Assembly: GCA_900317515.1 (NCBI GenBank)
Contig: ONHA01000005.1
Span: 30,782 to 94,781, forward strand
DNA length: 64,000 nt
Direction of reading: 5' to 3'
Source: an uncultured Eubacteriales bacterium
GTDB lineage: Bacteria; Bacillota; Clostridia; Lachnospirales; Lachnospiraceae
Part shown: piece by piece, positions 1 through 54,471 of the stretch
Numbering within the stretch: position 1 is the stretch's first letter
Layout of the letters: each line of letters starts with the position of its first letter
The notes under the pieces: generated by a model
Told to the model about the DNA's origin: nothing
The model's input: only the letters and a program-made list of their open reading frames with translations
Database searches by the model: none
Translations under genes and position numbers: made by a program

Positions 1-297
1 GACCTGGCCTACCTCACGCTGGAGACCAATGAGATCTGCCTGGATATCTTCGAAAATGAAGACAAGTCCCGCATCTCCGAGGCCGAGGAGGCCGAGCAGG
101 CGGTCGACGATTTCCAGCGTCTCATCATCAACAACCATGCGGACCGCCTGATGGCGAACAAGTGCCAGCCGATGGCCGGCATCGTCTTCACGGACATCTG
201 CACGGACCTCGAGCGTGTGTCCGACCACGCGCTGGACGTCGCGTTCACGATCATGAACGACGAGTCGGTCGGCTATGCGGAGAAGGACGCGGGCTGA
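1..297 (+). CDS. Na/Pi cotransporter family protein, C-terminal PhoU-like domain (5' truncated by window)
   Basis: Frame 1 is open from the first base to TGA at 295-297, giving the last 98 residues of a longer protein. The helical segment with NHADRLMANKCQP followed by FTDICTDLERVSDHALDVA matches the PhoU-like cytoplasmic tail of NptA-type Na/phosphate cotransporters, where a conserved (D/E)LERVxDHA helix is typical. The membrane part would lie upstream of the window. A stand-alone PhoU is the alternative, but the tail wording fits cotransporters better. The gene ends at a shared bidirectional terminator. Confidence 0.7.
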   Translation, partial: DLAYLTLETNEICLDIFENEDKSRISEAEEAEQAVDDFQRLIINNHADRLMANKCQPMAGIVFTDICTDLERVSDHALDVAFTIMNDESVGYAEKDAG

Positions 298-321
298 TCA
301 CAGACTGTATTAAGAAAATAA

Positions 322-361
322 AAACCCCTGAAACCTGACAGAGACGGTTTCAGGGGTTTAT
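322..361. terminator. bidirectional terminator between convergent genes
   Basis: A perfect 14-bp stem (322-335 with 346-359) has A-rich sequence on its left and T-rich sequence on its right. It can therefore end the + strand cotransporter and the minus strand radical SAM gene, whose stop codon lies inside the stem. Confidence 0.9.
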
Positions 362-1228
362 TTCTTTGAGGACTTTGTTGAGCTCGGAGAGCACCTTCTT
401 CTTGTTGCCGCACCAGAGCGGGGCGATAAGGAGATTTTTGGGGCCGTCTCCGGTCAGGCGGTGGACGATGACATCGTCCGGGATCAGCGGCAGCAGTTTT
501 TTCAGGAGCTCCATGTAGGCCTCCATGGACATGACCGGAACCCGGCCGGCATAGTAGTCGTCGGCGAGGTCCGTATTTTTGAGGATCTGAAGGAGCTGGA
601 GCTTGATTCCCTTTGCGCCGGAAGAGACCACATGGCGGACGGTGGCAGCCATGTCCTCTTCGGTTTCACCGGTGAGGCCGAGAATGACATGCGTGATGAC
701 GGTGAGGCCGGCTTCCGTGAGCCGGCGCACGGCATCGTCGTAGACGGAAAGCGGGTAGCCGCGGCGGATATAGGCGGCGGTGCGCTCGTGGACGGTCTGG
801 AGACCCAGCTCGACCCAGACCGGTTTTATGCGGTTTAATTCGGCGAGCAGGTCCAACACATCATCAGAGAGGCAGTCCGGTCTGGTCGCCACGGAGAGGA
901 TCACGACATCGTCGGGTTCAATGGCTTCATGGAATATTTTTCTCAGGTAGGGAACCGGCGCGTACGTGTTCGTGAAGCTCTGGAAGTAGGCGATGTATCT
1001 GCCGTCCTTCACCTTGGAGGCGACCCGGGCCTTCGCTTCGAGAAGCTGGTCCGGGATCGGCTTCAGCCGGTCCGCGGAGAATTCGCCCGACCCTCCTGCC
1101 GAACAGAAGATGCAGCCGCGCGTGCCGAGAGTGCCGTCCCGGTTGGGACAGGTGACGTCGGCGGAGAGGGCGATGCGGTAGACTTTGCAGCCGTAGATTT
1201 CTTTAAGGTAGGTGCTTGCGGTTTTCAT
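350..1228 (-). CDS. TIGR01212 family radical SAM protein (YhcC/YtqA type)
   Basis: This 292-aa protein carries the unusual CX11CX2C cluster of the family (Cys27, Cys39, Cys42, around CPNRDGTLGTRGCIFC) instead of the usual CX3CX2C, close to the N-terminus. Downstream stretches such as YFQSFTNTY, SVATRPDCL, ELGLQT and the ITHVILGLTGE segment are characteristic of TIGR01212. The cluster should bind a 4Fe-4S centre and SAM; the substrate of the family is, to my knowledge, not settled. Length is normal (about 300 aa). The gene is monocistronic here, convergent with the cotransporter and divergent from the DUF1848 gene. No strong ribosome site is visible before the ATG. Confidence 0.88.
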   Translation of the reverse strand: MKTASTYLKEIYGCKVYRIALSADVTCPNRDGTLGTRGCIFCSAGGSGEFSADRLKPIPDQLLEAKARVASKVKDGRYIAYFQSFTNTYAPVPYLRKIFHEAIEPDDVVILSVATRPDCLSDDVLDLLAELNRIKPVWVELGLQTVHERTAAYIRRGYPLSVYDDAVRRLTEAGLTVITHVILGLTGETEEDMAATVRHVVSSGAKGIKLQLLQILKNTDLADDYYAGRVPVMSMEAYMELLKKLLPLIPDDVIVHRLTGDGPKNLLIAPLWCGNKKKVLSELNKVLKEINP

Positions 1229-1309
1229 GTCATTACGATAACATAGATTGCAGTAACGGGCAAGAAGGAGAAAATGGCCTGATCGTCAGGACATTGAGGA
1301 ACACAGAGG

Positions 1310-2254
1310 ATGATCATCAACACGGGACAAAGGACAGACATACCGGCATTCTACGCGGACTGGTTCGCCAACCGGCTCCGCGAGGGGTTCGTGTGCGTCC
1401 GAAACCCCTTCAACCCGCAGCAGGTGAGCCGCTATAAGCTTGATCCCGCGGTGGTCGACGTCATCGGGTTCTGCTCGAAGAATCCGGAGCCGATGTTTAA
1501 ATACATGGATCTTCTTGCCGGGTACGGCCAGTTCTGGTATGTGACCATGACGCCCTACGGGCGGGACATTGAGCCGAATGTTCCGGACAAGCACCACCTC
1601 CTTGAGGTTTTCCGGGAGCTTTCGGAGATGGTCGGAATTGATTCGATTGGGTGGCGGTATGATCCGATTTTTATTTCCGATCGCTATACGAAGGAATATC
1701 ACATAAAGGCTTTCAGGACCATGGCGGAGGCCCTCGCCGGGAAGACCCGGATCGCGGTCATCAGCTTCATTGACCTTTACGACAAGGTGAAGCGGAACTT
1801 CCCGGAGGCGGAGAGAGTCGCCCGGGAAGACCGGATCGCGCTCGGACGGGAGATCATCAATATCGCGTCGGCCTGCGGGATGACCGTGCGTCCCTGCGCG
1901 GAAGGCGATGAGCTTGCCCCCTACGGGGCGGACTGCGGTGGATGCATGACGATCCCGGATTATGAGCGGTCAATCGGAGCGAAGCTGATCGTGCCGAAGC
2001 GGAAGCCGGCCCGGGAGGCGTGCGCCTGCTATCTCGCCGCCGACATCGGGGCCTATGACACCTGCCGGCACCTCTGCCGCTACTGCTATGCGAATGCGAG
2101 CCGGGAGGCGGTCGCGCGGAACACGAGACTGCACGATCCGGCGTCTCCGTTCCTCATCGGAAACTATCGGGAGGACGACCGGGTGCATGACGTGCCGCAG
2201 GAGTCCTGGGCGGACAGGCAGATGAGGCTCCTGTTGGACAACCCGGATCTCTAA
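1310..2254 (+). CDS. DUF1848 family protein
   Basis: A 314-aa protein of the DUF1848 type. It has the N-terminal pattern DIPAFYADWFANRLREG, the central WYVTMTPYG and GWRYDPIF stretches, and a cysteine-rich C-terminus with CACYLAADIG followed by CRHLCRYCYAN, a CX3CX2C arrangement like a radical SAM or Fe-S site but placed at the end of the chain. The fold is probably a TIM barrel carrying an Fe-S cluster; no reaction is established that I know of. GAGG lies about 12 bases before the ATG. The promoter of the next gene sits at its 3' end. Confidence 0.85.
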   Translation: MIINTGQRTDIPAFYADWFANRLREGFVCVRNPFNPQQVSRYKLDPAVVDVIGFCSKNPEPMFKYMDLLAGYGQFWYVTMTPYGRDIEPNVPDKHHLLEVFRELSEMVGIDSIGWRYDPIFISDRYTKEYHIKAFRTMAEALAGKTRIAVISFIDLYDKVKRNFPEAERVAREDRIALGREIINIASACGMTVRPCAEGDELAPYGADCGGCMTIPDYERSIGAKLIVPKRKPAREACACYLAADIGAYDTCRHLCRYCYANASREAVARNTRLHDPASPFLIGNYREDDRVHDVPQESWADRQMRLLLDNPDL

Positions 2255-2263
2255 TGGTATACT
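2234..2263 (+). promoter_or_regulatory. promoter of the deaminase-SLOG gene
   Basis: TTGGAC (2234-2239), an 18-base spacer, then an extended -10 TG-G-TATACT (2255-2263), overlapping the 3' end of the DUF1848 gene. Transcription would start near 2270, beyond the ATG at 2265, which supports initiation of the next gene at ATG 2289 behind GGAGGGG. Confidence 0.55.
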
Positions 2264-2288
2264 TATGAAAAAGTCAGTGGGAGGGGCC

Positions 2289-4748: not shown

Positions 4749-4765
4749 GGCATGCACTGAAGGGA

Positions 4766-4945: not shown

Positions 4946-4952
4946 AAAAACA

Positions 4953-4995: not shown

Positions 4996-4999
4996 GAGG

Positions 5000-5062: not shown

Positions 5063-7663
5063 ATGAACATTCAGAAATTTACACAGAAATCCATTGAGGC
5101 CATCCAGAACCTTGAAAAGACTGCGTATGATTTCGGCAACCAGGAGGTCACCCAGGAGCACCTTCTGTACTGCCTGATAAAGCAGGAGGACTCGCTCATC
5201 CTGAAGCTCGTAGAGAAGATGGGGATCGATCCGAAACAGTTTGCAAACGCCGTGACATCTGCCGTGGATGCGCAGGTCAAGGTGAACGGCGGCCAGCCCT
5301 ACATCGGGGCCGACCTCAACAAGTGCCTGATCAAGGCCGAGGATGAGGCGAAGGCGATGGGAGACGAGTATGTATCGGTCGAGCATATTTTCCTCTCCAT
5401 TCTCAAAAATGCAAGCCGCTCCATGAAGCAGCTGCTGTCCCGCTTCGGGATCGACAGGGATTCATTTTTAAAAGCGCTTCAGAGCGTGCGCGGCAACCAG
5501 AAGGTCACGACCGACAACCCGGAGGCGACCTACGACACCCTGAACAAGTACGGGACCGACCTCGTGGAGAAGGCAAGGCAGCAGAAGCTGGACCCGGTCA
5601 TCGGGCGTGACGACGAGATCCGCCAGGCGATCCTGATCCTGTCGAGAAAATCAAAAAACAACCCTGTCCTGATCGGTGAGCCCGGCGTCGGCAAGACCGC
5701 CGCGGTCGAGGGCCTGGCCCAGAGAATCGTTGCGGGGGATGTGCCGGACAATCTGAAGGACAAGCATATTTTTGCCCTGGACATGGGCGCGCTGGTCGCC
5801 GGCGCGAAATACAGGGGCGAGTTCGAGGAGCGTCTCAAGGCGGTCCTTGAGGAGGTCAGAAGCTCGGAAGGCGAGATCATCCTCTTTATCGACGAGCTGC
5901 ACCTGATTGTCGGCGCGGGCAAGACCGAAGGCGCGATGGACGCCGGCAACATGCTGAAGCCCATGCTGGCCCGCGGCGAGCTGCACTGCATCGGCGCGAC
6001 GACTCTGGACGAATACCGCAAGTACATCGAGAAGGACAAAGCTCTGGAGCGCCGGTTCCAGCCGGTCATGGTCGACGAGCCGACGCTCGAGGAGACGATC
6101 TCGATCCTTCGAGGCCTCAAGGAGCGCTACGAGGTCTACCACGGTGTCAAGATCACGGACTCCGCGCTGGTCTCGGCGGCAGCCCTTTCCCAGCGCTACA
6201 TCACCGACCGGTTCCTGCCGGACAAGGCGATCGACCTTGTGGACGAGGCCTGTGCGCTCATCAAGACGGAGCTCAACTCGCTTCCGACAGAGCTCGACGA
6301 GCAGCAGCGCAAGATCATGCAGATGGAGATCGAGGAGGCGGCCTTAAAGAAGGAGACCGACGCGCTGAGCCGTGAGCGCCTCGCAGACCTGCAGAAGGAT
6401 CTCGCGGAGCTCCGGGACACTTTCAATGCGCAGAAGGTCCAGTGGGAAAATGAAAAGAAGGACGTCGAGGGTCTCAAGGCCTACCGCGAGCAGATCGAAG
6501 CCCTGAACAACGAGATCGCGATCGCGGAGCGCAGCTACGACCTCAACAAGGCGGCCCAGCTCAAGTACGGCGAGCTGCCCAAGGTGCAGAAAGCCCTCGA
6601 GGAGGCGGAAGCCCGCGTGAAGGACAAGGACCTCTCGATGGTGCACGAGGAGGTGACGGACGACGAGATCGGCCGGATCGTCTCCAAGTGGACCGGCATC
6701 CCGGTCGCAAAGCTCACAGAGGGCGAGAGGGAGAAAGTCCTTCATCTGCCGGATGAGCTCCACAAGCGGGTGATCGGCCAGGATGTGGCGGTGCAGAAGG
6801 TCGCGGACGCGATCCTGCGCTCCAAGGCCGGCATCAAGGACCCGAAGCGGCCGATCGGTTCCTTCCTGTTCCTCGGACCGACCGGTGTCGGCAAGACGGA
6901 GCTGGCCAGAACGCTGGCGGCCAACCTCTTCGACGACGAGAACAACATGGTGCGTATCGACATGAGCGAGTACATGGAGAAATACTCCGTCTCGCGTCTC
7001 ATCGGAGCACCTCCCGGATACGTCGGCTACGACGAGGGCGGCCAGCTGACCGAGGCGGTCAGGAGAAAACCGTTCTCGGTTGTCCTCTTCGACGAGATCG
7101 AGAAGGCTCACCCGGACGTCTTCAACGTGCTCCTGCAGGTGCTCGATGACGGCCGCATCACGGACAGCCAGGGACGTACCGTGGACTTCAAGAACACGAT
7201 CATCATCCTGACCTCGAACCTGGGCAGCCAGTACCTGCTCGACGGGATCGATGAGAACGGCGAGATCAGCCGCTACGCGGAGGATATGGTGACGAATGAG
7301 CTGCGGGCGCATTTCCGTCCCGAGTTCCTGAACCGGCTCGATGAGACGATCATGTTCAAGCCGCTCACGAAGGAGAACATCGGCGGCATCGTCGATCTCA
7401 TGATGGCAAGTCTCAATGCCCGTCTTGCAGACCGGCAGCTGCACATCTCGCTCACGGATGAGGCAAAGGCTTACTGCATCGACAAGGGCTACGACCCGGT
7501 GTTCGGCGCGAGACCCTTAAAGCGGTATCTCCAGCAGAACGTCGAGACGCTGGCGGCCCGGATCATCCTCGGAAATGAAGTGCACGAGGGCTCCACGATC
7601 ATGATCGAGAAGAAGGGAGACGGCCTCTCCGGTTATGTGGTGGAGGCGCCCAGGGTGGTTTGA
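5063..7663 (+). CDS. clpB: ATP-dependent disaggregase ClpB
   Basis: Hsp100 chaperone that, with DnaK, pulls proteins out of aggregates in the cytoplasm. The 866 residues show the Clp N-terminal repeat domain (1-145), a first AAA+ domain with Walker A GEPGVGKT near 205-212 and Walker B ILFIDELH near 272, a middle coiled-coil domain (about 405-525, rich in Glu/Lys/Ala), and a second AAA+ domain with GPTGVGKT near 605-612 and [13 protein letters not shown]. Length and the long middle domain identify ClpB rather than ClpC or ClpA. GGAGG lies 9 bases before the ATG. Regulation by HrcA through CIRCE is visible upstream, and an intrinsic terminator follows, so the gene is monocistronic. Confidence 0.98.
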
Positions 7664-7756: not shown

Positions 7757-9412
7757 ATGAAATCAAAACTGTATCTCACGCTGACCGCGGTCTTTATGCT
7801 TCTCCTGCTCGGCCGCCCCCGGGCGGTCCTTGCCGACGGCCTGCCGGCCTCCGGCACCTACGTGATCCGGTCGTCGGTCTCGGAAAATAAAGTCCTCGAC
7901 ATTGCCGGGGCTTCCCAAAAAAGCGGGGGAAACCTTCAGCTCTACGAGGGAAACGGCAGCGCAGCCCAGCAATTTACCCTGACAAGGCTCGCCGACGGGT
8001 CCTACGAGGTCTCGCCGGTATGCTCCGGGCTCGCGCTCGACGTCGAGGGAGCGAGGTCGGCAAACGGGACCAACGTCCGCCAGTACACTCCGAACGGAAC
8101 CAGGGCCCAGAGATGGAAACTCACGGATGCCGGGGACGGAACGGTGAGCTTCTCGCCCGCCTGCGCACCGGGGACCTGCCTTGACATCGCCGGAGCCTCC
8201 ATGAAGAACGGCACCAACGTCCGGCTCTACGCCTCCAACGGGACAGCCGCGCAGAGATTCCGGCTCGAAGAGGTTGATTCGGAGCGGGTGGCCCCGGAGG
8301 GCACCTTTACGTTTGTATCGGCTCTTAATTCTGTGAAAGTGATCGATGTCTACGGCGGGCTGACCCGAAACGGAGCAAACGTACAGCTCTATTCTTCAAA
8401 CGGGACCGCGGCCCAGCAGTACTCCCTGACCTATCTCGGGGAAGGCTGGTACAAGATCCTCAACGTGAAAGCCGGGAAAGCTCTGGATATCGCGGGAGGC
8501 TCAAGAAAGAGCGGAACCAACATCCAGCTTTACACCGACAACGGGACAAATGCCCAGAAATGGCGGTTTGAAGAATACGGGGACGGGACATTCAGCATCG
8601 TCTCCGCACTCGGAAATGCTGTCGATATCGCCGGGGCAAGCCAGAAAAACGGCACGAACATCCGGACATACACGCCGAACGGGACGGCGGCGCAGAGGTT
8701 TTCATTTTCACCTGTCGTGCCGGTAAACCCGGTGCTCGGGGCCGACACAGTCCTTTCCTATGCGGCCGGAACCGTGCTCGAGGAGTCTCAGATCGACTGG
8801 AACAACGTATCCTCCTACTTCCGGATCAGCGGGATCAGCGCGGGCGACGCCGTCTACAACCGGATCATCGGAAAATCCTACCGGGACAACCCGGATATCG
8901 GGCTTTCAGACCTCCGGTATCTTAAGATGCTGCATTTTAACTATAACGGGAAAGTCCAGGTGGGAGAGATGATCACCAATCAGGCGATCGCGGCGGAGGC
9001 CCTCGACGTCTTCTACAATCTCTTTAAGAGCCGCTACCAGATCAACTCGATGTATCTGGTCGACCGCTACTGGACCGGGGACGGCGTGACGACCGACCTG
9101 GCCTCCGTCCGGGCAGACAATACAAGCTGCTTCAATTACCGAAAGGCCTCCGATGCGGACAACCTCTCGCGGCACGCGTTCGGGATGGCGATCGACTTAA
9201 ACCCGTTTGAGAACCCCTACGTGTATGTCTATCCGGACGGGCGGCACGTGAGCGAACCGGCCGAGGCCCAGGATTACGCGGTCAACCGGTCAGCCGGAAG
9301 GCCCCATGTGATCACGGGCTCGGATCTTGCGGTGCAGCTCTTTAAGTCCCACGGGTTCTCCTGGGGCGGCGACTGGGGAGGCCCGTATGATTATCAGCAT
9401 TTTGTGAAGTGA
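7757..9412 (+). CDS. secreted M15-family peptidase with ricin-type beta-trefoil repeats
   Basis: A 551-aa exported protein. The signal peptide (1-26, MKSKLYL...AVLA) is followed by six Q-x-[FWY] repeats (AAQQFTL, RAQRWKL, AAQRFRL, AAQQYSL, NAQKWRF, AAQRFSF) at about 45-residue spacing between residues 30 and 325. That is two ricin-B-like beta-trefoil lectin domains, each repeat carrying a LDIAG(A/G)S-K-GTN block. The C-terminal third is a VanY-like M15 carboxypeptidase: SRHAFGMAIDLNPF gives the metal ligands His473 and Asp480, and DYQHF gives His548. Lectin repeats probably hold the enzyme on glycan while it trims peptidoglycan peptides, although the exact bond is not shown. GGGAG precedes the ATG; it stands alone between terminators. 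Confidence 0.88.
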   Translation: MKSKLYLTLTAVFMLLLLGRPRAVLADGLPASGTYVIRSSVSENKVLDIAGASQKSGGNLQLYEGNGSAAQQFTLTRLADGSYEVSPVCSGLALDVEGARSANGTNVRQYTPNGTRAQRWKLTDAGDGTVSFSPACAPGTCLDIAGASMKNGTNVRLYASNGTAAQRFRLEEVDSERVAPEGTFTFVSALNSVKVIDVYGGLTRNGANVQLYSSNGTAAQQYSLTYLGEGWYKILNVKAGKALDIAGGSRKSGTNIQLYTDNGTNAQKWRFEEYGDGTFSIVSALGNAVDIAGASQKNGTNIRTYTPNGTAAQRFSFSPVVPVNPVLGADTVLSYAAGTVLEESQIDWNNVSSYFRISGISAGDAVYNRIIGKSYRDNPDIGLSDLRYLKMLHFNYNGKVQVGEMITNQAIAAEALDVFYNLFKSRYQINSMYLVDRYWTGDGVTTDLASVRADNTSCFNYRKASDADNLSRHAFGMAIDLNPFENPYVYVYPDGRHVSEPAEAQDYAVNRSAGRPHVITGSDLAVQLFKSHGFSWGGDWGGPYDYQHFVK

Positions 9413-10744: not shown

Positions 10745-11733
10745 GTGCGTCCTCCATTGGCTTTTTTCTGCATGCGTATGTCCTGTCCGATCAGCTTGAC
10801 AATCGTGTAGCTGCTCGTGATTCTTGAAAAAATGCGCTCCGTGTACATCTCCGCAAACTGGTCCAGCATGAGGTTGGTGGAAATAATCGTGGACCTGCTG
10901 CTTATGATCCGCTCGTTGATGATGTAGAAGAGCTGCGGCAGGGAAAATGAATTGACCGTCTCCGTCCCGAGATCGTCGATCGTCAGGCAGTCACACTCGC
11001 AGATCGCGCGGGCACTGTCGGAGTTCCGCCCGTTTCTCTCAAACGCCGCATCCGCAAGCAGATCAAAGAGATCCTTGGCGGAGAAGTAGAGGGCCGAGCA
11101 GGACCGGTTCAGGACCTCGGCGGCGATGCAGTGGGAGAGGAAGGTCTTTCCGACACCGGCATTGCCGTAGAGAAAGAGGTTGTTGCCGGGCTTTCCGATG
11201 TTGTCCGGGAAGCGCATTGCGGCTGCAAGAGCTGCCCTTGCAAGCTCAAGAGAACTTTTCCCGGTTGAGGGATCTATTATATCATCCGAGTAGTAGCTAA
11301 GAGAAAAATGACCGAAATTCTCTTCCTTTAAAATATCGCCGAGCCGGTAATCCCGGTAGAGGAGCTCGTCGGCCGCTTTCTTAAAGCAGGAGCAGCGGAC
11401 TCCGTCCACATATCCGGTGTCGCGGCAGAGCGGGCAGTCGTACTGCATCTCAAGGTAATCCGCCGGGTAACCGTGGGAGAGAAGCGCGGCTTCCCTCTTT
11501 CGGGAAATGAGCTGCATATCCCTGCGGTAGGCGGTGAGATCCGCCGAAGGATCGGCGATCCGGAGTCTGGCTGCCTTGAGGCTCAGTCGTCCGGCTTCCG
11601 CGTCCAGCTCCTTTATGACGGGGACGGCCTTCCCGATCTCCTCCTCGCGGGCGAGGAGCTCATGGCGGTGCATTTCCCGTATCTCGTCGTAGCGGCGCAT
11701 GACCGCGTCATACTGCGCATTGGTAAGAGGCAT
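10741..11733 (-). CDS. DnaC/DnaI-like AAA+ helicase loader
   Basis: ATPase expected to load the replicative helicase at origins or restart forks. The 330-aa protein has an N-terminal helical part, a cysteine cluster CPLCRDTGY...CSC near residues 100-117 as in DnaI-type loaders, Walker A GNAGVGKT near 190, and Walker B CLTIDDLGTE, followed by a sensor region with IISTN. It follows a DnaD-domain gene by 17 bases, the usual pairing for Clostridial primosome genes. Phage or transposon IstB-like ATPases are the nearest alternative, but the cysteine cluster and neighbour favour a helicase loader. Confidence 0.85.
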   Translation of the reverse strand: MPLTNAQYDAVMRRYDEIREMHRHELLAREEEIGKAVPVIKELDAEAGRLSLKAARLRIADPSADLTAYRRDMQLISRKREAALLSHGYPADYLEMQYDCPLCRDTGYVDGVRCSCFKKAADELLYRDYRLGDILKEENFGHFSLSYYSDDIIDPSTGKSSLELARAALAAAMRFPDNIGKPGNNLFLYGNAGVGKTFLSHCIAAEVLNRSCSALYFSAKDLFDLLADAAFERNGRNSDSARAICECDCLTIDDLGTETVNSFSLPQLFYIINERIISSRSTIISTNLMLDQFAEMYTERIFSRITSSYTIVKLIGQDIRMQKKANGGRT

Positions 11734-11750: not shown

Positions 11751-12827
11751 TCAGCTCTCGTCTGTGTCTGCATTTCCGAGAAGCTGGGCTTCAAGTTTCC
11801 TGTAATCGTAGGAGCGCTGCTCAAAATTGTAGAAATTGCCGGCAGGCTTTTTCCGGGGCCTCTGGGCAGCAGGCGTGTTTTCATTTTTCTTTCTGTCCGA
11901 TGATGCCTCGCGAAGGCTGTCCAGGCGGGCGATCTCCTCGAGCGTCTTTGCACCGTCACGATGCCAGCCGGCGATGATCCCGTCCGTGTAGGTCAGCGAC
12001 GGCGAAGAAGTGCGGAGCACGGCCCGGCGGCATGCCTCGAGGACCACCTCCTCCGGGAACTCCCAGGTCTTCATCCACTTGTCGATCATCGTGATGTCGG
12101 CGGTCGTGAGCGCGCGGTTCGTGATGCCGAGCGCCTTTAAGACTGCATAGTACTCGCGGCGGTTGTTCGTGACGAAATCCCGGGCGGCCTCCACCGAGCG
12201 GATCCCCTCCGCGTCCCAGGCGAGGGCGACCTTCTCGATGTAGCGGATGCTCTTGTGGCCGCGGCTGATGCAGTGCTCGAGCAGGAAGTCGATGAGGTCC
12301 GGCGGAAAATGAAGACCGTCGTAGAAATAGAGGAGCTTTTCAAGCTCGGTCTTCGTGAGCGGCCGGCCCATGTACTGCTCGGCGATGAAGAGAAACTCCT
12401 GCACATCCTCTTTCGACGAGAGCTCGCCGATGCGGCTCCTTGTGAGAGAGCCGGAAGGATTGGCCTCACCGGGCTTTATCTCGGTCTCCGCAGGCATCGC
12501 CTCTTCTTTGCGCGGTGCACAGGCTGCCGGCCCGCAGAAATTCACGATCGTGATCCTTCCCGGCATACCGTCCTCACGGTAGTCGATCTGAAGGACGCCC
12601 GCCTCGTTCCAGTAGCGGAGAGCGCGCAGCACGTCGGTCTCCGTGCAGTTCATCCGGTCCGCGATCGCGGAGAGCGAGAGAGAAGTGCCGGCGCCCGATG
12701 AGCGCAGCAAATAGAGGTAGATCTTCACGAACTCCCCATTGGCTTTCGGCATATATTCATCAAGAAATATATTGGCAAGCACCGTCACATCCTGCGGCCA
12801 GCATGCCTGAACGGAAAATGTTTCCAT
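11751..12827 (-). CDS. DnaD domain protein (replication initiation)
   Basis: Primosome protein of the DnaB/DnaD family, which remodels DNA and recruits the helicase loader. The 358-aa sequence has an N-terminal winged-helix part (about 20-100, IADRMNCTETDVLRALRYWNEAG) and two DnaD-type helical modules, about 130-215 (RPLTKTELEKLLYFYDG..., DLIDFLLEHCISRG, KSIRYIEKVALAW) and about 220-295 (ITNRALTTADITMIDKW..., EEVVLEACRRAV, SLTYTDGIIAGWH). The C-terminus is charged and likely flexible. First gene of the minus-strand operon; GAGG lies just before the ATG. The spacer upstream holds several DnaA-box-like sites. Confidence 0.88.
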   Translation of the reverse strand: METFSVQACWPQDVTVLANIFLDEYMPKANGEFVKIYLYLLRSSGAGTSLSLSAIADRMNCTETDVLRALRYWNEAGVLQIDYREDGMPGRITIVNFCGPAACAPRKEEAMPAETEIKPGEANPSGSLTRSRIGELSSKEDVQEFLFIAEQYMGRPLTKTELEKLLYFYDGLHFPPDLIDFLLEHCISRGHKSIRYIEKVALAWDAEGIRSVEAARDFVTNNRREYYAVLKALGITNRALTTADITMIDKWMKTWEFPEEVVLEACRRAVLRTSSPSLTYTDGIIAGWHRDGAKTLEEIARLDSLREASSDRKKNENTPAAQRPRKKPAGNFYNFEQRSYDYRKLEAQLLGNADTDES

Positions 12828-14761: not shown

Positions 14762-15064
14762 ATGAATATCACAGATGTCAGAGTCAGAAAAGTAACAAAA
14801 GACGGGAAAATGAAGGCGGTTATTTCGATCACGATCGATGACGAGTTTGTCGTTCACGACATCAAGGTCATCGAAGGTGAGAAAGGTCTCTTCATTGCGA
14901 TGCCGAGCCGCAAAGCTGCCGATGGGGAATACAGAGATATTGCCCATCCGATCAACTCAGCGACGAGAAATGAGATCCAGAGCATCATCTTAAGAAAATA
15001 CGAGGAGATGATTGCCCAGGAAGAAGCAGAAGCAGAGATTGCTTCCGAGGAGGATTATATCTGA
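14762..15064 (+). CDS. spoVG: septation/regulatory protein SpoVG
   Basis: Small conserved nucleic-acid-binding regulator first known from spore cortex formation and asymmetric septation. The 100 residues carry the family core [10 protein letters not shown], the [22 protein letters not shown] stretch and the signature [10 protein letters not shown] followed by DIAHPI. Length matches the family (about 85-100). The tail is acidic. It is monocistronic, and an IS element has landed 72 bases downstream, removing or replacing whatever 3' end it had; the IS-borne hairpin at 15168 can now terminate its transcript. Confidence 0.96.
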
Positions 15065-28032: not shown

Positions 28033-28089
28033 AAAGGCAGGCGGAAGGGTTTCATTTTCCGCCGAGTAAATCGCAAAGGATGTGACAAT

Positions 28090-28768: not shown

Positions 28769-31360
<2,592 letters not shown>

Positions 31361-33164: not shown

Positions 33165-33554
33165 ATGGAAAATGAAACCCGAAAGGCACCTGCGAAGGGC
33201 AAAAAGATCACGTTGGTCTCCCTCGCGGTGATCCAGGCAGGCGTCATCGTCTACACGATGTCGGGAATCTGCTCAAAAATGACATCAAATTACAAACCGT
33301 TTTCTTTTATGTGGCTTTTGTGGATCGGACTTGAAGTCTGTGCTCTGGGGGTATATGCTATATTCTGGCAGCAGATCATCAAGCGCTTCGATCTCTCGGT
33401 GGCATACGCAAACCGCGCGTTCGCGATCTTCTGGTCCATGCTGTGGGCAATGCTGCTGTTTAAGGAAAAAATCACACCGGCAAATACACTGGGCGTGCTG
33501 ATCATCTTTGCCGGGATCATGCTTGTGAACAGCGAGGCCGGCCATGAGTCTTAA
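33165..33554 (+). CDS. small DMT-superfamily transporter subunit A
   Basis: A 129-aa membrane protein with a charged N-terminal tail (1-14) and four TM helices (about 16-38, 45-68, 78-97, 104-122). The pattern AYANRAFAIFWSMLWAMLLFKEKITPANTLGVLIIFAGIMLVN is the half-repeat of EamA/SMR-type (ArnE/F-like) transporters. Its end overlaps the next gene by 11 bases, so two dissimilar subunits are made together, like heterodimeric SMR pairs. Substrate unknown; lipid-linked sugars or small polar metabolites are possible by family. Confidence 0.78.
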   Translation: MENETRKAPAKGKKITLVSLAVIQAGVIVYTMSGICSKMTSNYKPFSFMWLLWIGLEVCALGVYAIFWQQIIKRFDLSVAYANRAFAIFWSMLWAMLLFKEKITPANTLGVLIIFAGIMLVNSEAGHES

Positions 33555-39748: not shown

Positions 39749-39758
39749 AAATGAAGGG

Positions 39759-41285: not shown

Positions 41286-42760
41286 AATGCATGTACTGCG
41301 GGGCAGAGCTCTCCGATTCCGCGTACTGCCCGGTCTGCGGCCGGGATATCTCCGTGCAGCGGCAGGCGATCGTTCTGTCCGGGATCTACTATAATGAGGG
41401 GCTTGAGAAGGCCGAGGTGCGGGATCTGTCCGGCGCCATTTTGCTGCTCAGGCAGAGCCTCAAATTCAACAAGGAAAATATTCAGGCGAGAAACCTTCTG
41501 GGACTCGTCTATTTTGAGATGGGCGAGGCGGTTTCCGCCCTGTCCGAATGGGTCATCTCGCGGAATCTGAAGCCCGACCACAACCTCGCGACCCGCTACA
41601 TCTCCGAGATCGAGCGGGACGGCGCGAAGTTCGACGTGATTCGGCACACGATCAAAAAGTACAACGGGGCGCTGGCCAACTGCCGCTCCGGCAACGAGGA
41701 TGTGGCGGAGATCCAGCTTAAGAAGCTGCTGGCCCAGAACCCCAAGCTGATTAAGGGCTACCACCTGCTGGCGCTTCTCTACATGAAGCACGGCGAGTGG
41801 GAGAAGGCCAGAAAGCTCCTCAAAAAGGCGATCCGCATCGACCGGACCAACACGACGACCCTGCGTTTCCTCCGGGAGATCGACCGGGAGACGGGCGTTG
41901 TGACAAAGCTTGAGCCGCGGTTTTCATTTTTCGGAGGACAGGAGAGCGGCGAGGACCATCCCCAGATCAGGAAGAACCGCAAGGAGAGGAAGGCCATCCA
42001 GATCCGGGAGACCCCGCTCGCGGTGACCGCCTTCTCGATGGTCGCGGGCTTCCTCGTCGGGGCGGCCGCCATCTGGTTCCTGTTCGTGCCGGTCAGAACC
42101 GCCCAGATCCAGCAGGAGGCCAACCGCAAGGTGATCGAGTATTCGACCGACATGGCGGAAAATGAAGAGCAGATGCAGATCATGCAGAGCGAACTTGAGG
42201 CCTCCCGCGAGGCGGTCGCCAACGTTAATGACGAGATCGCGGCGGCCGGCGTGAAGGCGGCGGCCTACGAGAACCTCGCCAAGGCGGTGAACGCCTACAA
42301 CAACAATGAGTTTGACCAGGCGATGAACGCGCTTCAGGCGGTGGACCTCTCCCAGCTTTCGATCGAGGCACGGTCGATCTGCGCGGAGCTCGGCGGGACC
42401 ACGATGGCCTCGATGCTGCAGAATTTCCGGGCATCCGGCCTCATGGCCTTCAACAACGGCAATTACGAGGAGGCCGTGAAGGCCCTCGAGAAAGCCAAGG
42501 CGATCGAAGACGAAGACTACGACGTGCTTCTCTACCTCGGCCACTCCTACCGCATGATGGGAGATACGGTGAGTGCGGATGAGAATTACAAGCGCATCAT
42601 AACCCTCTGGCCGGACACGAACCGCTCGGCGACGGCCGTTGAGTTTGTGACGGACTACTCGGATATATTCCAGAGCCAGGAACCGGCAGCGGCAGATAAC
42701 GCGGCGGCAGCCGCACCGGCGGCGCCCGAGAATGCGGCGCCCGAAAACCCCGCACCCTAA
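41282..42760 (+). CDS. zinc-ribbon, TPR, single-TM protein
   Basis: A 492-aa protein with an N-terminal zinc ribbon (Cys3, Cys6 and Cys17, Cys20 in CMYCGAELSDSAYCPVCG) and cytoplasmic TPR-like helices (about 35-215: IYYNEGLEKAEVRDLSGAILLLRQSL, NLLGLVYFEMGE, YHLLALLYMKHGEWEKARKLLKKAI). One TM helix follows (about 246-268), then an external coiled coil (about 275-330), more TPR-like repeats (FDQAMNALQAVD, NYEEAVKALEKA, YDVLLYLGHSYRMMGD) and an Ala/Pro/Asn tail. The topology suggests a scaffold linking cytoplasm and wall, consistent with murB next to it, but function is unknown. Start coupled to the 51-aa ORF. Confidence 0.8.
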   Translation: MKCMYCGAELSDSAYCPVCGRDISVQRQAIVLSGIYYNEGLEKAEVRDLSGAILLLRQSLKFNKENIQARNLLGLVYFEMGEAVSALSEWVISRNLKPDHNLATRYISEIERDGAKFDVIRHTIKKYNGALANCRSGNEDVAEIQLKKLLAQNPKLIKGYHLLALLYMKHGEWEKARKLLKKAIRIDRTNTTTLRFLREIDRETGVVTKLEPRFSFFGGQESGEDHPQIRKNRKERKAIQIRETPLAVTAFSMVAGFLVGAAAIWFLFVPVRTAQIQQEANRKVIEYSTDMAENEEQMQIMQSELEASREAVANVNDEIAAAGVKAAAYENLAKAVNAYNNNEFDQAMNALQAVDLSQLSIEARSICAELGGTTMASMLQNFRASGLMAFNNGNYEEAVKALEKAKAIEDEDYDVLLYLGHSYRMMGDTVSADENYKRIITLWPDTNRSATAVEFVTDYSDIFQSQEPAAADNAAAAAPAAPENAAPENPAP

Positions 42761-42789: not shown

Positions 42790-43731
42790 ATGCTGATACG
42801 TGAACTTGAGCGAATACTCGGAAAAGACAATATACTGATAAATGAACCCCTCTCCCGCCACACATCCTTCCGGATCGGCGGGCCGGCACAGCGCTTTCTC
42901 ATGCCCGCGGGGGCGGAGGAAGTCAGGGAGGCGGTCCGGCTCCTTAAGGAGGCGGAGGAACCGTTCTTCGTCATGGGAAACGGCACGAACCTGCTGGTCT
43001 CGGATGAGGGCTATAACGGCACGGTGATCGCGCTGGGGAAAAACATGGCCGATATCCGGGCGAAGGGACATACGATCACGGCGGATGCCGGCGCACTTCT
43101 CTCGAAGATCGCGGCGGAGGCGCTTAAGGAATCTCTCACCGGATTTGAATTTGCGGCCGGCATACCCGGATCTCTGGGCGGAGCCTGCGTGATGAACGCC
43201 GGCGCCTACGGCGGGGAGATGAAGGATGTCCTTGTATCCTGCGAGATCCTCACGAAAGAGGGGGATATCCGGACGGTTTCCGGGCCGGAGCTCGGCCTTT
43301 CCTACCGCCATTCCGCGCTTATGGAGCGCGGCGATCTGGTGCTCTCCGCGTCTCTCTCGCTTGAAGAGGGCATTGCCGAGGAGATCCGGGCACGCATGGA
43401 GGATCTCAAAAAGAGGCGGCAGGACAAGCAGCCCCTCGAGCTTCCCAGCGCGGGCAGCACGTTCAAGAGGCCGGAAGGCTATTTTGCCGGCAAGCTGATC
43501 ATGGATGCGGGGCTGCGCGGTGCCCGGGAGGGCGGCGCCTGCGTATCCGAAAAGCACTGCGGCTTTGTCGTAAATGATAAAGGCGCAACGGCCGAAGACG
43601 TGGTCCGGCTCATGAACCGGGTCAGACGGACGGTCTACGAGCAGTTCGGCGTCGTGCTTGAGCCGGAGGTGAGGATGCTGGGAGAGTTTCATTTTACGGA
43701 AAATGAAAACCCCTGGGAGGACCCGGCATGA
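42790..43731 (+). CDS. murB: UDP-N-acetylenolpyruvoylglucosamine reductase
   Basis: FAD/NADPH enzyme making UDP-MurNAc. The 313 residues show the FAD-binding start HTSFRIGGPAQRF, VMGNGTNLLVSDEG, the FAAGIPGSLGGACVMNAGAYGGEM block, and the catalytic serine region LPSAGSTFKRPEGYFAGKLI with GGACVSEKHCGFVVN, marking type II MurB of Firmicutes. Its stop overlaps the rapZ ATG (ATGA). The last 20 codons contain an inverted pair of the GAAAATGAA motif. First enzyme of the murB-rapZ-whiA-crh cluster. Confidence 0.97.
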   Translation: MLIRELERILGKDNILINEPLSRHTSFRIGGPAQRFLMPAGAEEVREAVRLLKEAEEPFFVMGNGTNLLVSDEGYNGTVIALGKNMADIRAKGHTITADAGALLSKIAAEALKESLTGFEFAAGIPGSLGGACVMNAGAYGGEMKDVLVSCEILTKEGDIRTVSGPELGLSYRHSALMERGDLVLSASLSLEEGIAEEIRARMEDLKKRRQDKQPLELPSAGSTFKRPEGYFAGKLIMDAGLRGAREGGACVSEKHCGFVVNDKGATAEDVVRLMNRVRRTVYEQFGVVLEPEVRMLGEFHFTENENPWEDPA

Positions 43732-45860: not shown

Positions 45861-46625
45861 TCAGTCGTACTTTACGCGGAACCAGTCCACGTGGGAATCG
45901 GTGAAGCCGAGCTTGCGGTAGAGGTTCCTTGCGGGCATGTTGCCGGCGACGACCTGGAGATAAGCCCGGGTAGCTCCCGCTTTGCGGCCTTCCGCAAGGA
46001 TGCGCTTTACGATCGCGGCGGCAATGCCTCTCTGCCGGAGATCCTCGCGGACATGGATCGCATAGACGCCGATGTAGTCCCGGTCGAGGATGCCGAGGCC
46101 GGTCGCACCGCAGGAGCCGTCCGGCAGGCGGAGGGAGACCGCGACCTCATCCATGGGGATGGCGGCGTACATGTCCGGGACGATGGACAGGTGGACCGGA
46201 TCGGTTGTGTTTTTAAGCGTAAAGAGCCCCTCGATCCACTTCGCGTTCACCCGGCTTTCGACGGTGAGGCGGGGGAGGGTTTCATTTTCAGAAGGAACGG
46301 GACGGCTGATGTCCGCCGTCATGTTGTAGACCCGGTGCTCGATCCTGTAGCCGCGCGATTCGAGGAGCCCGTCCAGAGCCGGATCCGTGACGGGCGTGAT
46401 CTTGAAAATGCAGGGCGTCTTCCAGCGGCGGTAAATGCGCTCGCAGTAGGGGATCTTCTCCTCAAGCGGCAGGATGGAAGCGCCGATCTGCTCCACGCAG
46501 TTGGTTCTGTGGGTGTAGAACGCGGAGTAGCGCATGATCCACCCGTCGTAGAAGAGCATCTGAAAGGACGGCCAGGCGTTCAGTGATAAATCTTCAATGG
46601 TTTTAATATCTGTGTACATGTGCAT
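45861..46625 (-). CDS. GNAT family N-acetyltransferase
   Basis: A 254-aa acyl-CoA transferase. The N-terminal half (1-130, with SLNAWPSFQMLFYDGWIMRYS) is typical of a family in which a divergent GNAT-like domain precedes the active one. The C-terminal half has the acetyl-CoA loop VREDLRQRGIAAAIVKRIL (Q/R-x-x-G-x-A) and LQVVAGNMPARNLYRKLGF. Substrate unknown. The start is uncertain: ATG at 46625 (MHMYTD) or 46619, with longer readings possible to 46655; no ribosome site is clear. Convergent with the crh operon. Confidence 0.82.
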   Translation of the reverse strand: MHMYTDIKTIEDLSLNAWPSFQMLFYDGWIMRYSAFYTHRTNCVEQIGASILPLEEKIPYCERIYRRWKTPCIFKITPVTDPALDGLLESRGYRIEHRVYNMTADISRPVPSENETLPRLTVESRVNAKWIEGLFTLKNTTDPVHLSIVPDMYAAIPMDEVAVSLRLPDGSCGATGLGILDRDYIGVYAIHVREDLRQRGIAAAIVKRILAEGRKAGATRAYLQVVAGNMPARNLYRKLGFTDSHVDWFRVKYD

Positions 46626-48292: not shown

Positions 48293-48345
48293 CAACACAT
48301 TAGTATGATTGCGTGCAAGTGCAATCCGCTGTAAGGAGGAAGAAA

Positions 48346-48978
48346 ATGAAAAAAGCAATACTTGCGACAAAAGTCGGCATGACTCAGGTCTTTGCTGACG
48401 ACGGTGCTGTCACACCGGTGACGGTCCTTCAGGCCGGCCCGTGCGTGGTCACACAGATCAAGACGGTTGAGAAGGACGGCTATGAAGCAGTTCAGGTCGG
48501 CTTCGGCGATATCCGTGAGAAGCTTGTCACCAAGGGTGTCAAGGGCGTCTACGAGAAGGCCGGCGTTTCCGTCAGAAGATTCATGAAAGAGTTCCGCTTC
48601 GAGAATGCCGCTGACTACAAGGTCGGCGATGAGATCAAGGCTGACATCTTCGCAGCCGGCGATCATATCGATGCCACGGCTGTTTCGAAGGGCAAAGGCT
48701 TCCAGAGCGCGATCAAGCGTTTCGGCCAGCACAGAGGCCCGATGAAGCACGGTTCCAAGTTCCATCGCCATGCAGGCTCCAACGGCTCATCCTCCGATCC
48801 GAGCCGCGTATTCAAGGGCAAAGGCATGCCGGGACAGATGGGCAGCAAGCGCATCACGATCCAGAACCTCGAGATCGTCCGCGTCGATGCGGATAAGAAT
48901 CTCATCCTTGTGAAGGGCGCGGTTCCGGGACCGAAGAAGTGCCTCGTCACGATCAGAGAAACAGTTAAGTGCAAGTAA
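48346..48978 (+). CDS. rplC: 50S ribosomal protein L3
   Basis: 210-aa 50S protein near the peptidyl transferase centre. It starts at ATG 48346 ([16 protein letters not shown]) behind AAGGAGGAAG. It contains the long central loop ISKGKGFQ...[18 protein letters not shown] in the [19 protein letters not shown] form and ends [11 protein letters not shown]. The start codon lies inside a GAAAATGAA motif. Confidence 0.98.
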
Positions 48979-49928: not shown

Positions 49929-49976
49929 TGAGTGCATGAAAGGCCGCGGCAGAAGTTCATTTTCGAAACATGCCGC

Positions 49977-50017: not shown

Positions 50018-50038
50018 TAAAAGAAGGAGATTACTAAA

Positions 50039-50887: not shown

Positions 50888-50900
50888 GGAGGTATAGGAT

Positions 50901-51176: not shown

Positions 51177-51205
51177 GCGCCGGGCAGATCGAAAGGAGAA
51201 TATTC

Positions 51206-51595: not shown

Positions 51596-51606
51596 GGAGG
51601 GGCAAT

Positions 51607-52724: not shown

Positions 52725-52927
52725 AAAGTACGAAATATTTAGAGTCTCTGCGCGGTAAGAGCGCTGCAGAGCTGAACGAGGAACTGGTATCGGCGAAGAA
52801 AGAGCTGTTCAACCTGAGATTCCAGAACGCTACGAATCAGCTGGACAATACTGCAAGAGTCGGTGAGGTCCGCAAGAACATCGCCAGGATCCAGACCGTG
52901 ATTGCCGAGAAGGCTAAGGAGGCTTAA
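52721..52927 (+). CDS. rpmC: 50S ribosomal protein L29
   Basis: 68-aa helical hairpin protein at the tunnel exit. Contains [26 protein letters not shown] and [15 protein letters not shown]. Translationally coupled to rplP by ATGA; two bases separate it from rpsQ. Confidence 0.97.
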
Positions 52928-52929
52928 TA

Positions 52930-53187
52930 ATGGAAGAAAGAAACCTCAGAAAAACACGCGTCGGCAAAGTCGTCAGCAATAAGATGGACAAGACGATCGT
53001 CGTTGCAATCGAGGACCGTGTCCGTCATCCGCTTTACAAGAAGATCGTTAACAAGACCTATAAGCTGAAAGCTCATGATGAGAACAATGAGTGCAGCATC
53101 GGCGATACCGTAAGGGTTATGGAGACAAGACCTCTCTCCAAGGATAAGAGATGGAGACTTGTCGAGATCGTCGAGAAGGTTAAGTAA
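52930..53187 (+). CDS. rpsQ: 30S ribosomal protein S17
   Basis: 85-aa OB-fold primary 16S-binding protein: [58 protein letters not shown]. Confidence 0.98.
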
Positions 53188-53221
53188 GCTGCCCGGCGTG
53201 AGCAAATAGGAGGATACAAGT

Positions 53222-53590
53222 ATGATTCAACAGGAAAGCAGACTGAGAGTCGCTGATAATACCGGAGCGAAGGAAATTCTGTGTATCCGTGTCATGGGCG
53301 GCTCTACCAGAAGATATGCCCATATCGGCGATGTTATCGTTGCTACGGTTAAAGATGCAACACCCGGCGGCGTTGTGAAAAAAGGTGATGTGGTCAAGGC
53401 TGTTGTCGTCCGTACGGTCGACGGCTCCCGCCGCAAGGATGGTTCCTACATCCGCTTTGACGAGAATGCTGCTGTTATCATCAAGGATGACAAGACACCG
53501 AGAGGAACACGTATTTTCGGACCCGTTGCCCGTGAGCTCAGAGAGAAGCAGTTCATGAAGATCGTTTCTCTTGCTCCGGAAGTACTGTAA
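53222..53590 (+). CDS. rplN: 50S ribosomal protein L14
   Basis: 122-aa intersubunit bridge protein: [63 protein letters not shown] precedes the ATG. Confidence 0.98.
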
Positions 53591-53602
53591 GGGGGTAAAG
53601 GA

Positions 53603-53914
53603 ATGGCTACACTTAAGATTAAGAAGGGCGATACCGTCCGCGTCATCGCCGGCAAGGATAAAGACAAGGAAGGCAAGGTCCTCTCTGTCAATGCCAAGAA
53701 CAGCACGATCGTGGTCGAGGGCGTCAACATGATCACCAAGCACGAGAAGCCGTCGGCAGCAAACCAGAACGGCGGTATCGTGAACCGTGAGGCGCCGATC
53801 AGCATTTCGAATGTCATGTACCTTCACAAAGGCCAGCCGACCAGAATCGGTTTCCGCTTTGAAAATGATAAGAAGGTCCGCTTCGCCAAGAAAACCGGCG
53901 AGACAATCGGCTGA
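53603..53914 (+). CDS. rplX: 50S ribosomal protein L24
   Basis: 103-aa assembly-initiator with N-terminal KOW motif ([20 protein letters not shown]) and [14 protein letters not shown]. Preceded by GGGGGTAAAGG. Confidence 0.98.
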
Positions 53915-53931
53915 GGAAGGAGGAACAGGTT

Positions 53932-54471
53932 TTGAGCAGACTTAAAGAACAGTACGAAAATGAAATCGTACCGGCACTCAAAAAGAAATTTGAGTATAAG
54001 AATCCGATGGAAGTTCCGAAGCTCGTAAAGATTGTCGTCAACATGGGTGTTGGCGAGGCCAAGGAAAACGTCAAGCTCCTTGATGCTGCTGTTGCAGACA
54101 TGGAGACCATCACCGGCCAGAAGGCAATCCGCACCAAGGCTAAGAAGTCCATCGCGAACTTCAAGCTTCGTGAAGGCATGCCGATCGGCTGCAAAGTCAC
54201 ACTCCGCGGCGAGCGTATGTATGAGTTCGCTGACCGTCTTATCAATCTCTCTCTTCCGCGTGTCCGCGACTTCCGCGGCGTGAACCCGAATGCTTTTGAC
54301 GGCCGCGGCAACTATGCCCTCGCTGTCAAAGAGCAGCTCATCTTCCCGGAAATCGAGTATGATAAGATCGACAAGGTAAGGGGCATGGATATCATCTTCG
54401 TCACGACTGCAAAGACGGACGAAGAGGCCCGCGAACTGCTGAGACTGTTCAATATGCCGTTCGCTAAGTAA
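53932..54471 (+). CDS. rplE: 50S ribosomal protein L5
   Basis: 179-aa 5S rRNA-binding protein: [67 protein letters not shown]. It initiates at TTG 53932 behind GGAAGGAGG (no in-frame ATG fits the N-terminus [13 protein letters not shown]), a rare start codon for a core ribosomal gene. Confidence 0.97.

What the first reader, a model, noticed from the sequence alone, without database searches (positions are those of the whole stretch)
52..53964. Overrepresented 9-mer GAAAATGAA: possible genome-wide DNA signal
I count 22 exact copies (14 forward, 8 reverse) in 64 kb. From base composition (about 21% each for A and T) a rough hand estimate is well below one. As internal control, GAAAATG occurs about 39 times on both strands and more than half continue with AA. 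In genes the motif is read as Glu-Asn-Glu, Phe-Ile-Phe, Phe-Ser-Phe-Ser, Leu-His-Phe and Gly-Lys-Met-Lys, and it also lies in spacers (17084, 28051, 49956) and over stop or start codons, so protein constraint does not explain it. It uses GAA and AAT where neighbouring genes prefer GAG and AAC. Length variants with 3 or 5 A also recur. Uptake-sequence-like, Chi-like, chromosome-organising or modification-site roles are all possible; the mixed strands fit an uptake or symmetric role better than Chi. It nearly vanishes after 54 kb, in highly expressed genes. The copy at the rplC start may be chance.
Basis: partly seen in the sequence, partly recalled or inferred. Interest (0 to 1): 0.75.

Follow-up and report, generated by a model that had tools for sequence, protein, structure and literature searches.

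The report
Genus-wide DNA signal with species dialects
An unnamed gut or rumen bacterium and several of its relatives carry one short DNA word hundreds of times across the genome, spelled differently in different branches of the genus, much like the self-recognition tags that some unrelated bacteria use when taking up DNA; what reads it here is not known.

Summary
GAAAATGAA occurs 22 times in the window (shuffles 0.82) and 788 times in the 2.72-Mb genome, against 10 for the reversed word. Synonymous-codon shuffling of sampled genes predicts 8 sense and 3 antisense copies; 70 and 42 are seen. Tripeptides it encodes are in excess too (ENE 64 against 27). It is the centre of a longer degenerate, non-palindromic motif, about T..GGAAAATGAAAaCC.C, randomly spaced and without replication polarity. 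Sites turn over between species while density stays similar.

One clade has TTGCAAATG up to 402 times against 7 for the control. Across 31 species on a SecA tree, dialect follows phylogeny (7 changes; 500 shuffles never below 8). This resembles the uptake-sequence dialects of two Gram-negative families. No reader protein was identified: the genome has ComEA, ComEC and Tad-type genes, but no type IV pilin was found. It works like an uptake-type self-recognition signal; membership is unproven.

The parts
52..60 (+). motif copy GAAAATGAA
2520..2528 (-). motif copy; continues AACC (extended consensus)
6446..6454 (+). motif copy
8701..8709 (-). motif copy; continues AACC (extended consensus)
10943..10951 (+). 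motif copy
12305..12313 (+). motif copy
14806..14814 (+). motif copy
16413..16421 (-). motif copy
22886..22894 (-). motif copy; continues AACC
27765..27773 (+). motif copy; the same word stands at this place in G032 and G037, not in G005 or G035
28051..28059 (-). motif copy between called genes; aligned copy in G032 and G005, not in G037 or G035
30521..30529 (+). motif copy inside secA; Glu-Asn-Glu is found at this place in several relatives, so protein constraint may hold this one
33168..33176 (+). motif copy just after a start codon; kept in G037
34377..34385 (+). motif copy; aligned place in G037 reads GAGAACGCC
39747..39755 (+). motif copy over a gene end (ORF ends 39748)
42158..42166 (+). 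motif copy
43699..43707 (+). motif copy; continues AACCCC
46281..46289 (-). motif copy; continues ACCC
48342..48350 (+). motif copy near the start of an ORF (listed from 48313)
49956..49964 (-). motif copy between called genes
53956..53964 (+). last exact motif copy; aligned place in G035 reads GAAAACGAA

Best explanation
The 9-mer is the centre of a degenerate, non-palindromic DNA signal of about 14-18 bp, spread at random through the sampled chromosome on both strands. Its enrichment is driven at the DNA level, strongly enough to bend codon choice and even protein sequence. Different species of this Lachnospiraceae genus use different dialects around a common AAATG (shown). The best reading is a self-recognition signal of the DNA-uptake-sequence type: a sequence-specific DNA-binding step favours DNA from the same species, and repeated exchange of such DNA makes the word accumulate (inferred). 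The reader protein is unknown. Because this genome encodes ComEA, ComEC and a Tad-type ATPase with its platform protein, but no type IV pilin was found, the most likely uptake route is a Tad pilus feeding ComEA and ComEC, as in Micrococcus luteus (inferred).
For: Genome-wide excess 788 against 10. Top word at each length from 7 to 10 in the sample at order 2. Codon-permutation null exceeded about 9-fold sense and 14-fold antisense. Of ten tripeptides tested, the four that the motif can encode (ENE, FIF, FSF, FHF) are above every one of 15 shuffles and the other six are not. Extended motif. Gap lengths fit an exponential (578 gaps, CV 0.95, KS p 0.28); extended-motif sites lie 264 on the G-rich strand and 276 on the other. 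Density 0.85-0.92 per kb of gene at gene GC 0.54 and above, so observed/expected reaches 14 in GC-rich genes. Close opposed pairs outnumber same-strand pairs, 28 of 39 (p 0.009), as described for uptake sequences, though the total number of close pairs is what chance gives. Site turnover: 3 of 3 kept in G032 at 86% identity, 2 of 11 in G037 at 77%, where any 9-mer is kept at 14%, although G037 has 657 copies in 2.6 Mb. Dialects; they follow the SecA tree. Some close pairs of separate assemblies agree (G025/G017 351 and 402 TTGCAAATG; G000/G032 788 and 682 GAAAATGAA). ComEA and ComEC; T2SSE and T2SSF genes side by side. Precedents: dialects with a shared CTG core that follow phylogeny (PMC3630211, passages); Flp pili with comEA and comEC but no comG in M. 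luteus (PMC6370729, passages); Tad pili and DNA uptake (PMC8513845, abstract).
Against: No transformation or binding evidence for this genus was found or produced. No type IV pilin (N_methyl family) was found in G000, and its only T2SSE hit over the cut-off is CpaF-like, so the known receptor class is absent or missed. ComEC is in 38 of 42 genus genomes, including G027, a one-contig genome without the signal, and was not found in G005 (81% complete), which has it: gene presence does not track the motif. Unlike published uptake sequences, exact sites are not enriched in non-coding DNA (15 intergenic and 5 edge of 131, with 12.6% non-coding); extended sites are 95 of 599 between genes, about 3 times the simulated spacer background, against about 13 times in genes. 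The consensus is weak (131 perfect against 427 one-mismatch copies, 133 expected, summed). Samples of G021, G020, G017 and G027 show little or no AAATG word among the top ranks (G017 and G020 through small samples). G004 lacks the TTGCAAATG excess of its near relative G028 (42 against 198). GAAAATGCC is raised in GAAAATGAA genomes too (G032 222 against 13), so it is not a clean dialect.
Confidence: 0.45

Rival explanations
1. Binding site of a very abundant nucleoid-associated or chromosome-organising protein. Selection keeps its density, not its positions, and the protein's specificity has drifted between species, giving dialects.
For: Even density with random spacing and no polarity; turnover of positions at similar density; an AT-rich centre between GG and CC; no need for competence genes.
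Against: Recalled, not tested: known sites of this kind are usually palindromic or clustered and seldom change proteins. Here protein sequence is altered and the word changes between sister clades.
Confidence: 0.22
2. Recombination or repair signal like Chi, read by an AddAB-type nuclease-helicase, with species-specific variants.
For: Chi words are short, over-represented and differ between lineages (recalled). Exact words lie somewhat more often on the G-rich strand: 74 to 52 in G000 (p 0.06), GAAAATGAA 31 to 15 in G026 (p 0.03), TGAAAATG 31 to 14 in G015 (p 0.02); seven of the other nine words and genomes tested lean the same way without significance, one is level and one leans the other way. 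In G014 spacers 16 of 21 lie on the G-rich strand.
Against: The lean follows gene sense, not replication: in lagging-oriented genes of G000 13 sense against 9 antisense, extended motif 67 against 29; between genes 7 against 8, and 45 against 39. In relatives the lagging-gene counts are small: G026 6 to 2 and 5 to 6, G016 5 to 2, G014 9 to 2, G015 1 to 0, G025 0 to 2 (sense to antisense). Extended-motif sites overall 264 against 276. The degenerate 14-18 bp motif is unlike an exact 5-8-base Chi (recalled). AddAB itself was not searched.
Confidence: 0.12
3. A self-mark for another DNA transfer or defence step (phage-like packaging, DNA modification or nuclease exemption).
For: Any step that favours motif-bearing self DNA over long times would give the same pattern; the dialects would then mark self against neighbour species.
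Against: No such gene was looked for; modification cannot be read from assembled sequence.
Confidence: 0.1
4. Compositional, codon-pair or mutational bias without function.
For: GAAAATGAA is mildly above its reversed control in many of 75 genomes of other genera, at most about 6-fold (G080, 79 against 13).
Against: Codon permutation, sense, antisense and intergenic occurrence, altered protein sequence, extended consensus, restriction to the genus: GAAAATGAAAAC 122 against 0 here, at most 14 in 149 other genera of the family.
Confidence: 0.04

Closest known systems
DNA uptake sequence (DUS) dialects of Neisseriaceae (PMC3630211, passages read)
   Same: Short non-palindromic word at hundreds to thousands of copies; variants between species that share an invariant core (CTG there, AAATG here); distribution follows phylogeny; some family members lack it.
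   Different: Different word and AT-rich here; a Gram-positive family; no type IV pilin found in this genome; no uptake experiment; consensus degenerate here.
Uptake signal sequence (USS) of Pasteurellaceae (PMC1626085 passages; PMC2346458 first of three parts)
   Same: A 9-bp core is the commonest repeat in several genomes, in both orientations, randomly located, with subclade-specific types; one orientation is commoner in reading frames; some close opposed pairs.
   Different: USS prefer non-coding DNA, not seen here for exact copies. USS have an unusually strong consensus; here one-mismatch copies outnumber perfect ones.
Tad/Flp-pilus DNA uptake of Micrococcus luteus (PMC6370729, passages)
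   Same: comEA, comEC and a Tad-type ATPase with platform gene, no classical competence pilin found.
   Different: No uptake sequence is mentioned for M. luteus in the passages read; the Tad set here was only partly seen, and Flp pilins were not searched for.
Chi sites of RecBCD and AddAB (recalled)
   Same: Short over-represented words that differ between lineages.
   Different: No replication polarity beyond gene sense here; degenerate and longer.

Membership tests
DNA uptake sequence (DUS/USS) | Most over-represented short word family of the genome | tested here: met
   in the 16-17% of G000 sampled: top word at lengths 7-10, order 2; AAATG words hold ranks 1-3 of 26,044 8-mers at order 2. 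At length 11 another repeat, AGAACCGTCCC, is first
DNA uptake sequence (DUS/USS) | Both orientations about equal, random positions | tested here: met
   399/389 (contigs of arbitrary orientation); spacing and 264/276
DNA uptake sequence (DUS/USS) | Subclade-specific variants with a shared core, following phylogeny | tested here: met
   cut-offs chosen after seeing the counts
DNA uptake sequence (DUS/USS) | Preference for non-coding DNA | tested here: not met
   15 intergenic + 5 edge of 131, 12.6% non-coding; extended motif 95 of 599 but less above background than in genes; described as a preference, not a rule, in PMC1626085
DNA uptake sequence (DUS/USS) | Some close, oppositely oriented pairs | tested here: inconclusive
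   28 opposed against 11 same-strand pairs at 10-60 bp among 599 sites (p 0.009), but 39 pairs in all is the chance number, 39.7, and no spacing dominates
DNA uptake sequence (DUS/USS) | Strong consensus, perfect copies prevail | tested here: not met
   131 perfect, 427 one-mismatch (133 expected), summed
DNA uptake sequence (DUS/USS) | Arises by substitution, not insertion of an element | tested here: inconclusive
   several ungapped alignments over sites, some gapped ones in poorly aligned stretches
DNA uptake sequence (DUS/USS) | Cognate receptor, a type IV minor pilin (ComP in Neisseriaceae) | tested here: not met
   no N_methyl match in G000, 94% complete; a short profile can miss pilins
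DNA uptake sequence (DUS/USS) | Raises uptake or transformation of DNA | not testable with these tools
   needs an experiment
Chi site | Orientation bias relative to replication (recalled) | tested here: not met
   G000; leading strand inferred from GC skew only; relatives too few in lagging genes to tell
Chi site | Attenuates RecBCD/AddAB | not testable with these tools
   needs an experiment
KOPS-like segregation signal (recalled) | Strong polarity toward the terminus | tested here: not met
Mobile repeat (REP, MITE) | Copies share sequence beyond the core | tested here: not met
   flanks of 131 sites differ only weakly from background beyond about -5 and +15

The most novel reading that the evidence does not exclude
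A DNA-uptake self-recognition system in Gram-positive Clostridia, with species dialects that isolate neighbouring rumen and gut species genetically, read by a machinery other than the type IV minor pilins known so far, possibly Tad pili with ComEA and ComEC.
Probability: 0.33. Interest if true: 0.92.

Novelty: new variant of a known kind. Interest (0 to 1): 0.78.

Why it matters
In the papers I looked into, sequence-tagged DNA uptake is documented in two Gram-negative families. The same kind of genomic signature, dialects included, in a Gram-positive gut and rumen genus would point to natural transformation where my searches found no report of it, would give a marker for who exchanges genes with whom, and would offer dialect pairs from which the reader protein can be found by co-variation. 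Either way the question becomes directly testable.

Tried and rejected
Compositional and codon explanations: rejected. Chi- or KOPS-like polarity: in G000 the mild lean follows gene sense. Mobile repeat: flanks not shared. A first motif model by expectation-maximisation with 39 columns drifted to general AT-richness and was thrown away; the 21-column model with an order-4 background and a fixed 450 sites was used, so its site number is set, not estimated. ComEC and T2SSE presence as correlates of the motif: neither separates motif-rich from motif-poor genomes. The density cut-offs for the tree labels (110 per Mb GAAAATGAA, 50 per Mb TTGCAAATG) were chosen after seeing the counts. Of 42 genus genomes 31 were placed on the tree (30 loci returned plus G032); the other 11, with partial or no full-length SecA match there, include motif-rich ones of both kinds (G009, G033, G034, G036; G003, G022).

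Assumptions: genes were called by a simple codon-usage script, not by a published gene finder; leading strand was inferred from GC skew of mostly 20-kb stretches; samples of relatives range from 16 kb (G010) to 240 kb (G026). G002 (36 kb), G010 and the single locus of G011 were looked at and dropped: G002 and G011 showed no AAATG word on top, G010 a weak GGAAATGA (5 against 0.7).

Full report
What was checked. The window holds 22 exact GAAAATGAA, 14 forward and 8 reverse, where 100 dinucleotide shuffles give 0.82 on average. The window lies in a 2.72-Mb genome of 79 contigs (94% complete). That genome holds 399 + 389 = 788 copies, one per 3.45 kb, against 10 for the same word read backwards. 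The 16 nearest named SecA matches (80-88% identity) are unnamed Lachnospiraceae or Clostridia, mostly metagenome assemblies; their genomes have the same motif counts as genomes that the genome tool places in the window's genus (for example L001 and G005).

Not composition, not codons. In 423,335 sampled bases of this genome there are 131 copies; Markov models of order 2, 3 and 4 expect 6.6, 12.1 and 23.0. Copies fall in genes in the sense direction (69), antisense (42), over gene edges (5) and between genes (15), in every reading frame that does not create a stop. Permuting synonymous codons inside each gene, 60 times, gives 8.1 sense and 3.0 antisense where 70 and 42 are seen. Glu-Asn-Glu is written GAA AAT GAA in 51 of 64 cases, although GAG is three times as common as GAA. 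The pressure reaches the protein level: ENE occurs 64 times against 27.1 on average (largest of 15 shuffles 38) when residues are shuffled within proteins, FIF 29 against 16.8 (24), FSF 30 against 15.3 (22), FHF 10 against 3.6 (8); DND, EQE, QNE, LIL, FVF and FTF show no excess.

The real unit. A position model built from 450 sites reads about T..GGAAAATGAAAaCC.C: AAAT almost invariant, variation tolerated around it, and C or A at position 13. It is not palindromic. With this model 599 sites score 11 bits or more, against 171-191 in five codon-permuted versions, a control that leaves the spacers, with 95 of the sites, unpermuted. In simulated order-2 sequence, spacers give 19-39 such sites where 95 are seen, and coding DNA 39 where 504 are seen. 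Gaps between sites fit an exponential (578 gaps, CV 0.95, KS p 0.28) and sites lie 264 on the G-rich strand and 276 on the other. Pairs 10-60 bp apart are as many as chance gives (39 against 39.7), but 28 of the 39 are opposed (p 0.009). Exact words lean toward the G-rich strand (74 to 52, p 0.06), but this follows gene sense: in lagging-oriented genes sense still exceeds antisense (13 to 9; extended motif 67 to 29), and between genes there is no clear lean (7 to 8; 45 to 39). The same control in five relatives has few lagging genes and is indecisive. Density is flat (0.85-0.92 per kb) across genes of 54% GC and above, so the excess over expectation grows with GC.

Turnover. Of the window's sites that can be aligned, 3 of 3 are intact in G032 (86% identical over the aligned part), 2 of 11 in G037 (77%, where any 9-mer is intact at 14%), 2 of 8 in G005 and 1 of 7 in G035. 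Yet G037 has 657 copies in about 2.6 Mb. Density is maintained while positions change. The copy inside secA (30521) is an exception that may be held by the protein.

Dialects. Among 41 other genomes of the genus, GAAAATGAA ranges from 52 to 715 copies. Sampling showed that several genomes poorer in it over-use other words around AAATG: TTGCAAATG or TTTGCAAATG in G025 (TGCAAATG first of 14,271 8-mers), GAAAATGG in G014, TGAAAATG in G015, GGAAATGA in G026, GAAAATGC or GAAAATGCC in G012 (first at order 3, second at order 2), CAAATGCA in G006 (62 kb only; first at order 3; best AAATG word fifth at order 2). G027, complete in one contig, showed no such word in 140 kb, nor did G045 of another genus in 80 kb; G021 was weak; the G020 and G017 samples alone put no AAATG 8-mer in the top ten. 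Whole-genome counts of TTGCAAATG confirm the second dialect: G017 402 (reversed control 7), G001 361 (11), G025 351 (4), G003 256 (5), G020 229 (17), G028 198 (7), G022 160 (7), and only 28 (4) in the window's genome. GAAAATGCC is highest in G030, G023, G019 and G014 (313, 290, 271, 268; controls 48, 29, 17, 14), but also raised in GAAAATGAA-rich G032 (222; 13), so it is not a clean third dialect. On a SecA tree of 31 genus members and two outgroups, G001, G020, G025 and G017 form one clade (support 99/96) inside a wider group (94/92) that also holds the GAAAATGAA-rich G000/G032/G037, G005/G035 and G018. With three labels the tree needs 7 changes; 500 label shuffles need 12.35 on average and never fewer than 8. 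Cut-offs were set after seeing the data. Results that do not fit neatly: G004 has 42 TTGCAAATG although its near relative G028 has 198, and GAAAATGAA is also high in G016, G026 and G014, elsewhere on the tree. The correlation between the two densities over the 31 genomes is weak (Spearman -0.27, p 0.14).

Reach. The longer word GAAAATGAAAAC occurs 122 times here with 0 reversed, and at most 14 times in any of 149 other genera of the family. In the 75 other-genus genomes, GAAAATGAA exceeds its reversed control at most about 6-fold (G080, 79 to 13), against 11-fold or more in the rich members of the genus.

Machinery. The genome has ComEA (SLBB and helix-hairpin-helix domains, L206 4274-4867) and ComEC (L206 7903-10095) in one region, and a CpaF-like T2SSE ATPase followed by a T2SSF platform protein (L207). 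It has no N_methyl pilin match, while G026, G018 and G037 have matches over the cut-off (15 genomes searched). ComEC is in 38 of 42 genus genomes and a T2SSE match in 42 of 42 (39 over the family cut-off), so neither explains the motif's distribution. M. luteus, with comEA, comEC and Flp pili but no comG cluster, is a working precedent for such a set (PMC6370729, passages); Tad pili also serve DNA uptake in Liberibacter crescens (PMC8513845, abstract).

Judgement. Features shared with uptake sequences: most over-used word family, both orientations, random places, subclade dialects with a common core that follow phylogeny, and a hint of opposed pairing. Features not shared: non-coding preference of exact copies, a strong perfect consensus, and a type IV minor pilin. 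I therefore say that it works most like an uptake-type self-recognition signal and do not file it as a member. Steps shown: excess, DNA-level pressure, symmetry, turnover, dialects. Steps inferred: that exchange of tagged DNA drives it, and that a Tad, ComEA and ComEC route is involved.

Noticed in passing
L081:1053-1083, L085:529-619 and other stretches of the same genome: A second over-used word, AGAACCGTCCCC (11-mer AGAACCGTCCC 45 copies against 0.3 expected; 40 of 45 between genes), in the copies viewed often as tandem copies or as an inverted pair GGGGACGGTTCT...AGAACCGTCCCC; GAACCGTCCC is also over-used in G032. Looks like a small intergenic hairpin repeat.
   Followed up: partly
sampled genes of this genome (window and L081-L099): CACGATC in the sense direction is twice its synonymous-codon expectation (166 against 76, largest 105), with a weaker excess of its complement (91 against 61, largest 81).
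   Followed up: no
window 7757-9412: Protein with repeated ricin-type lectin domains and an M15-type D-Ala-D-Ala carboxypeptidase domain, perhaps a cell-wall enzyme with sugar-binding repeats.
   Followed up: no
L207:12992-14662: AAA-ATPase-like protein with a PD-(D/E)XK nuclease domain shortly after the Tad-type genes.
   Followed up: no
G016 samples (L132-L135, L011, L223-L229): GGGGTGCTGA 13 copies against 0.1 expected in 174 kb of G016, a further species-specific repeat of unknown kind.
   Followed up: no
TTGCAAATG hits in G018 and G027: Overlapping hits on both strands show that the word sometimes stands as the perfect palindrome CATTTGCAAATG; whether the palindrome or one half is the unit in the second dialect is open.
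   Followed up: no
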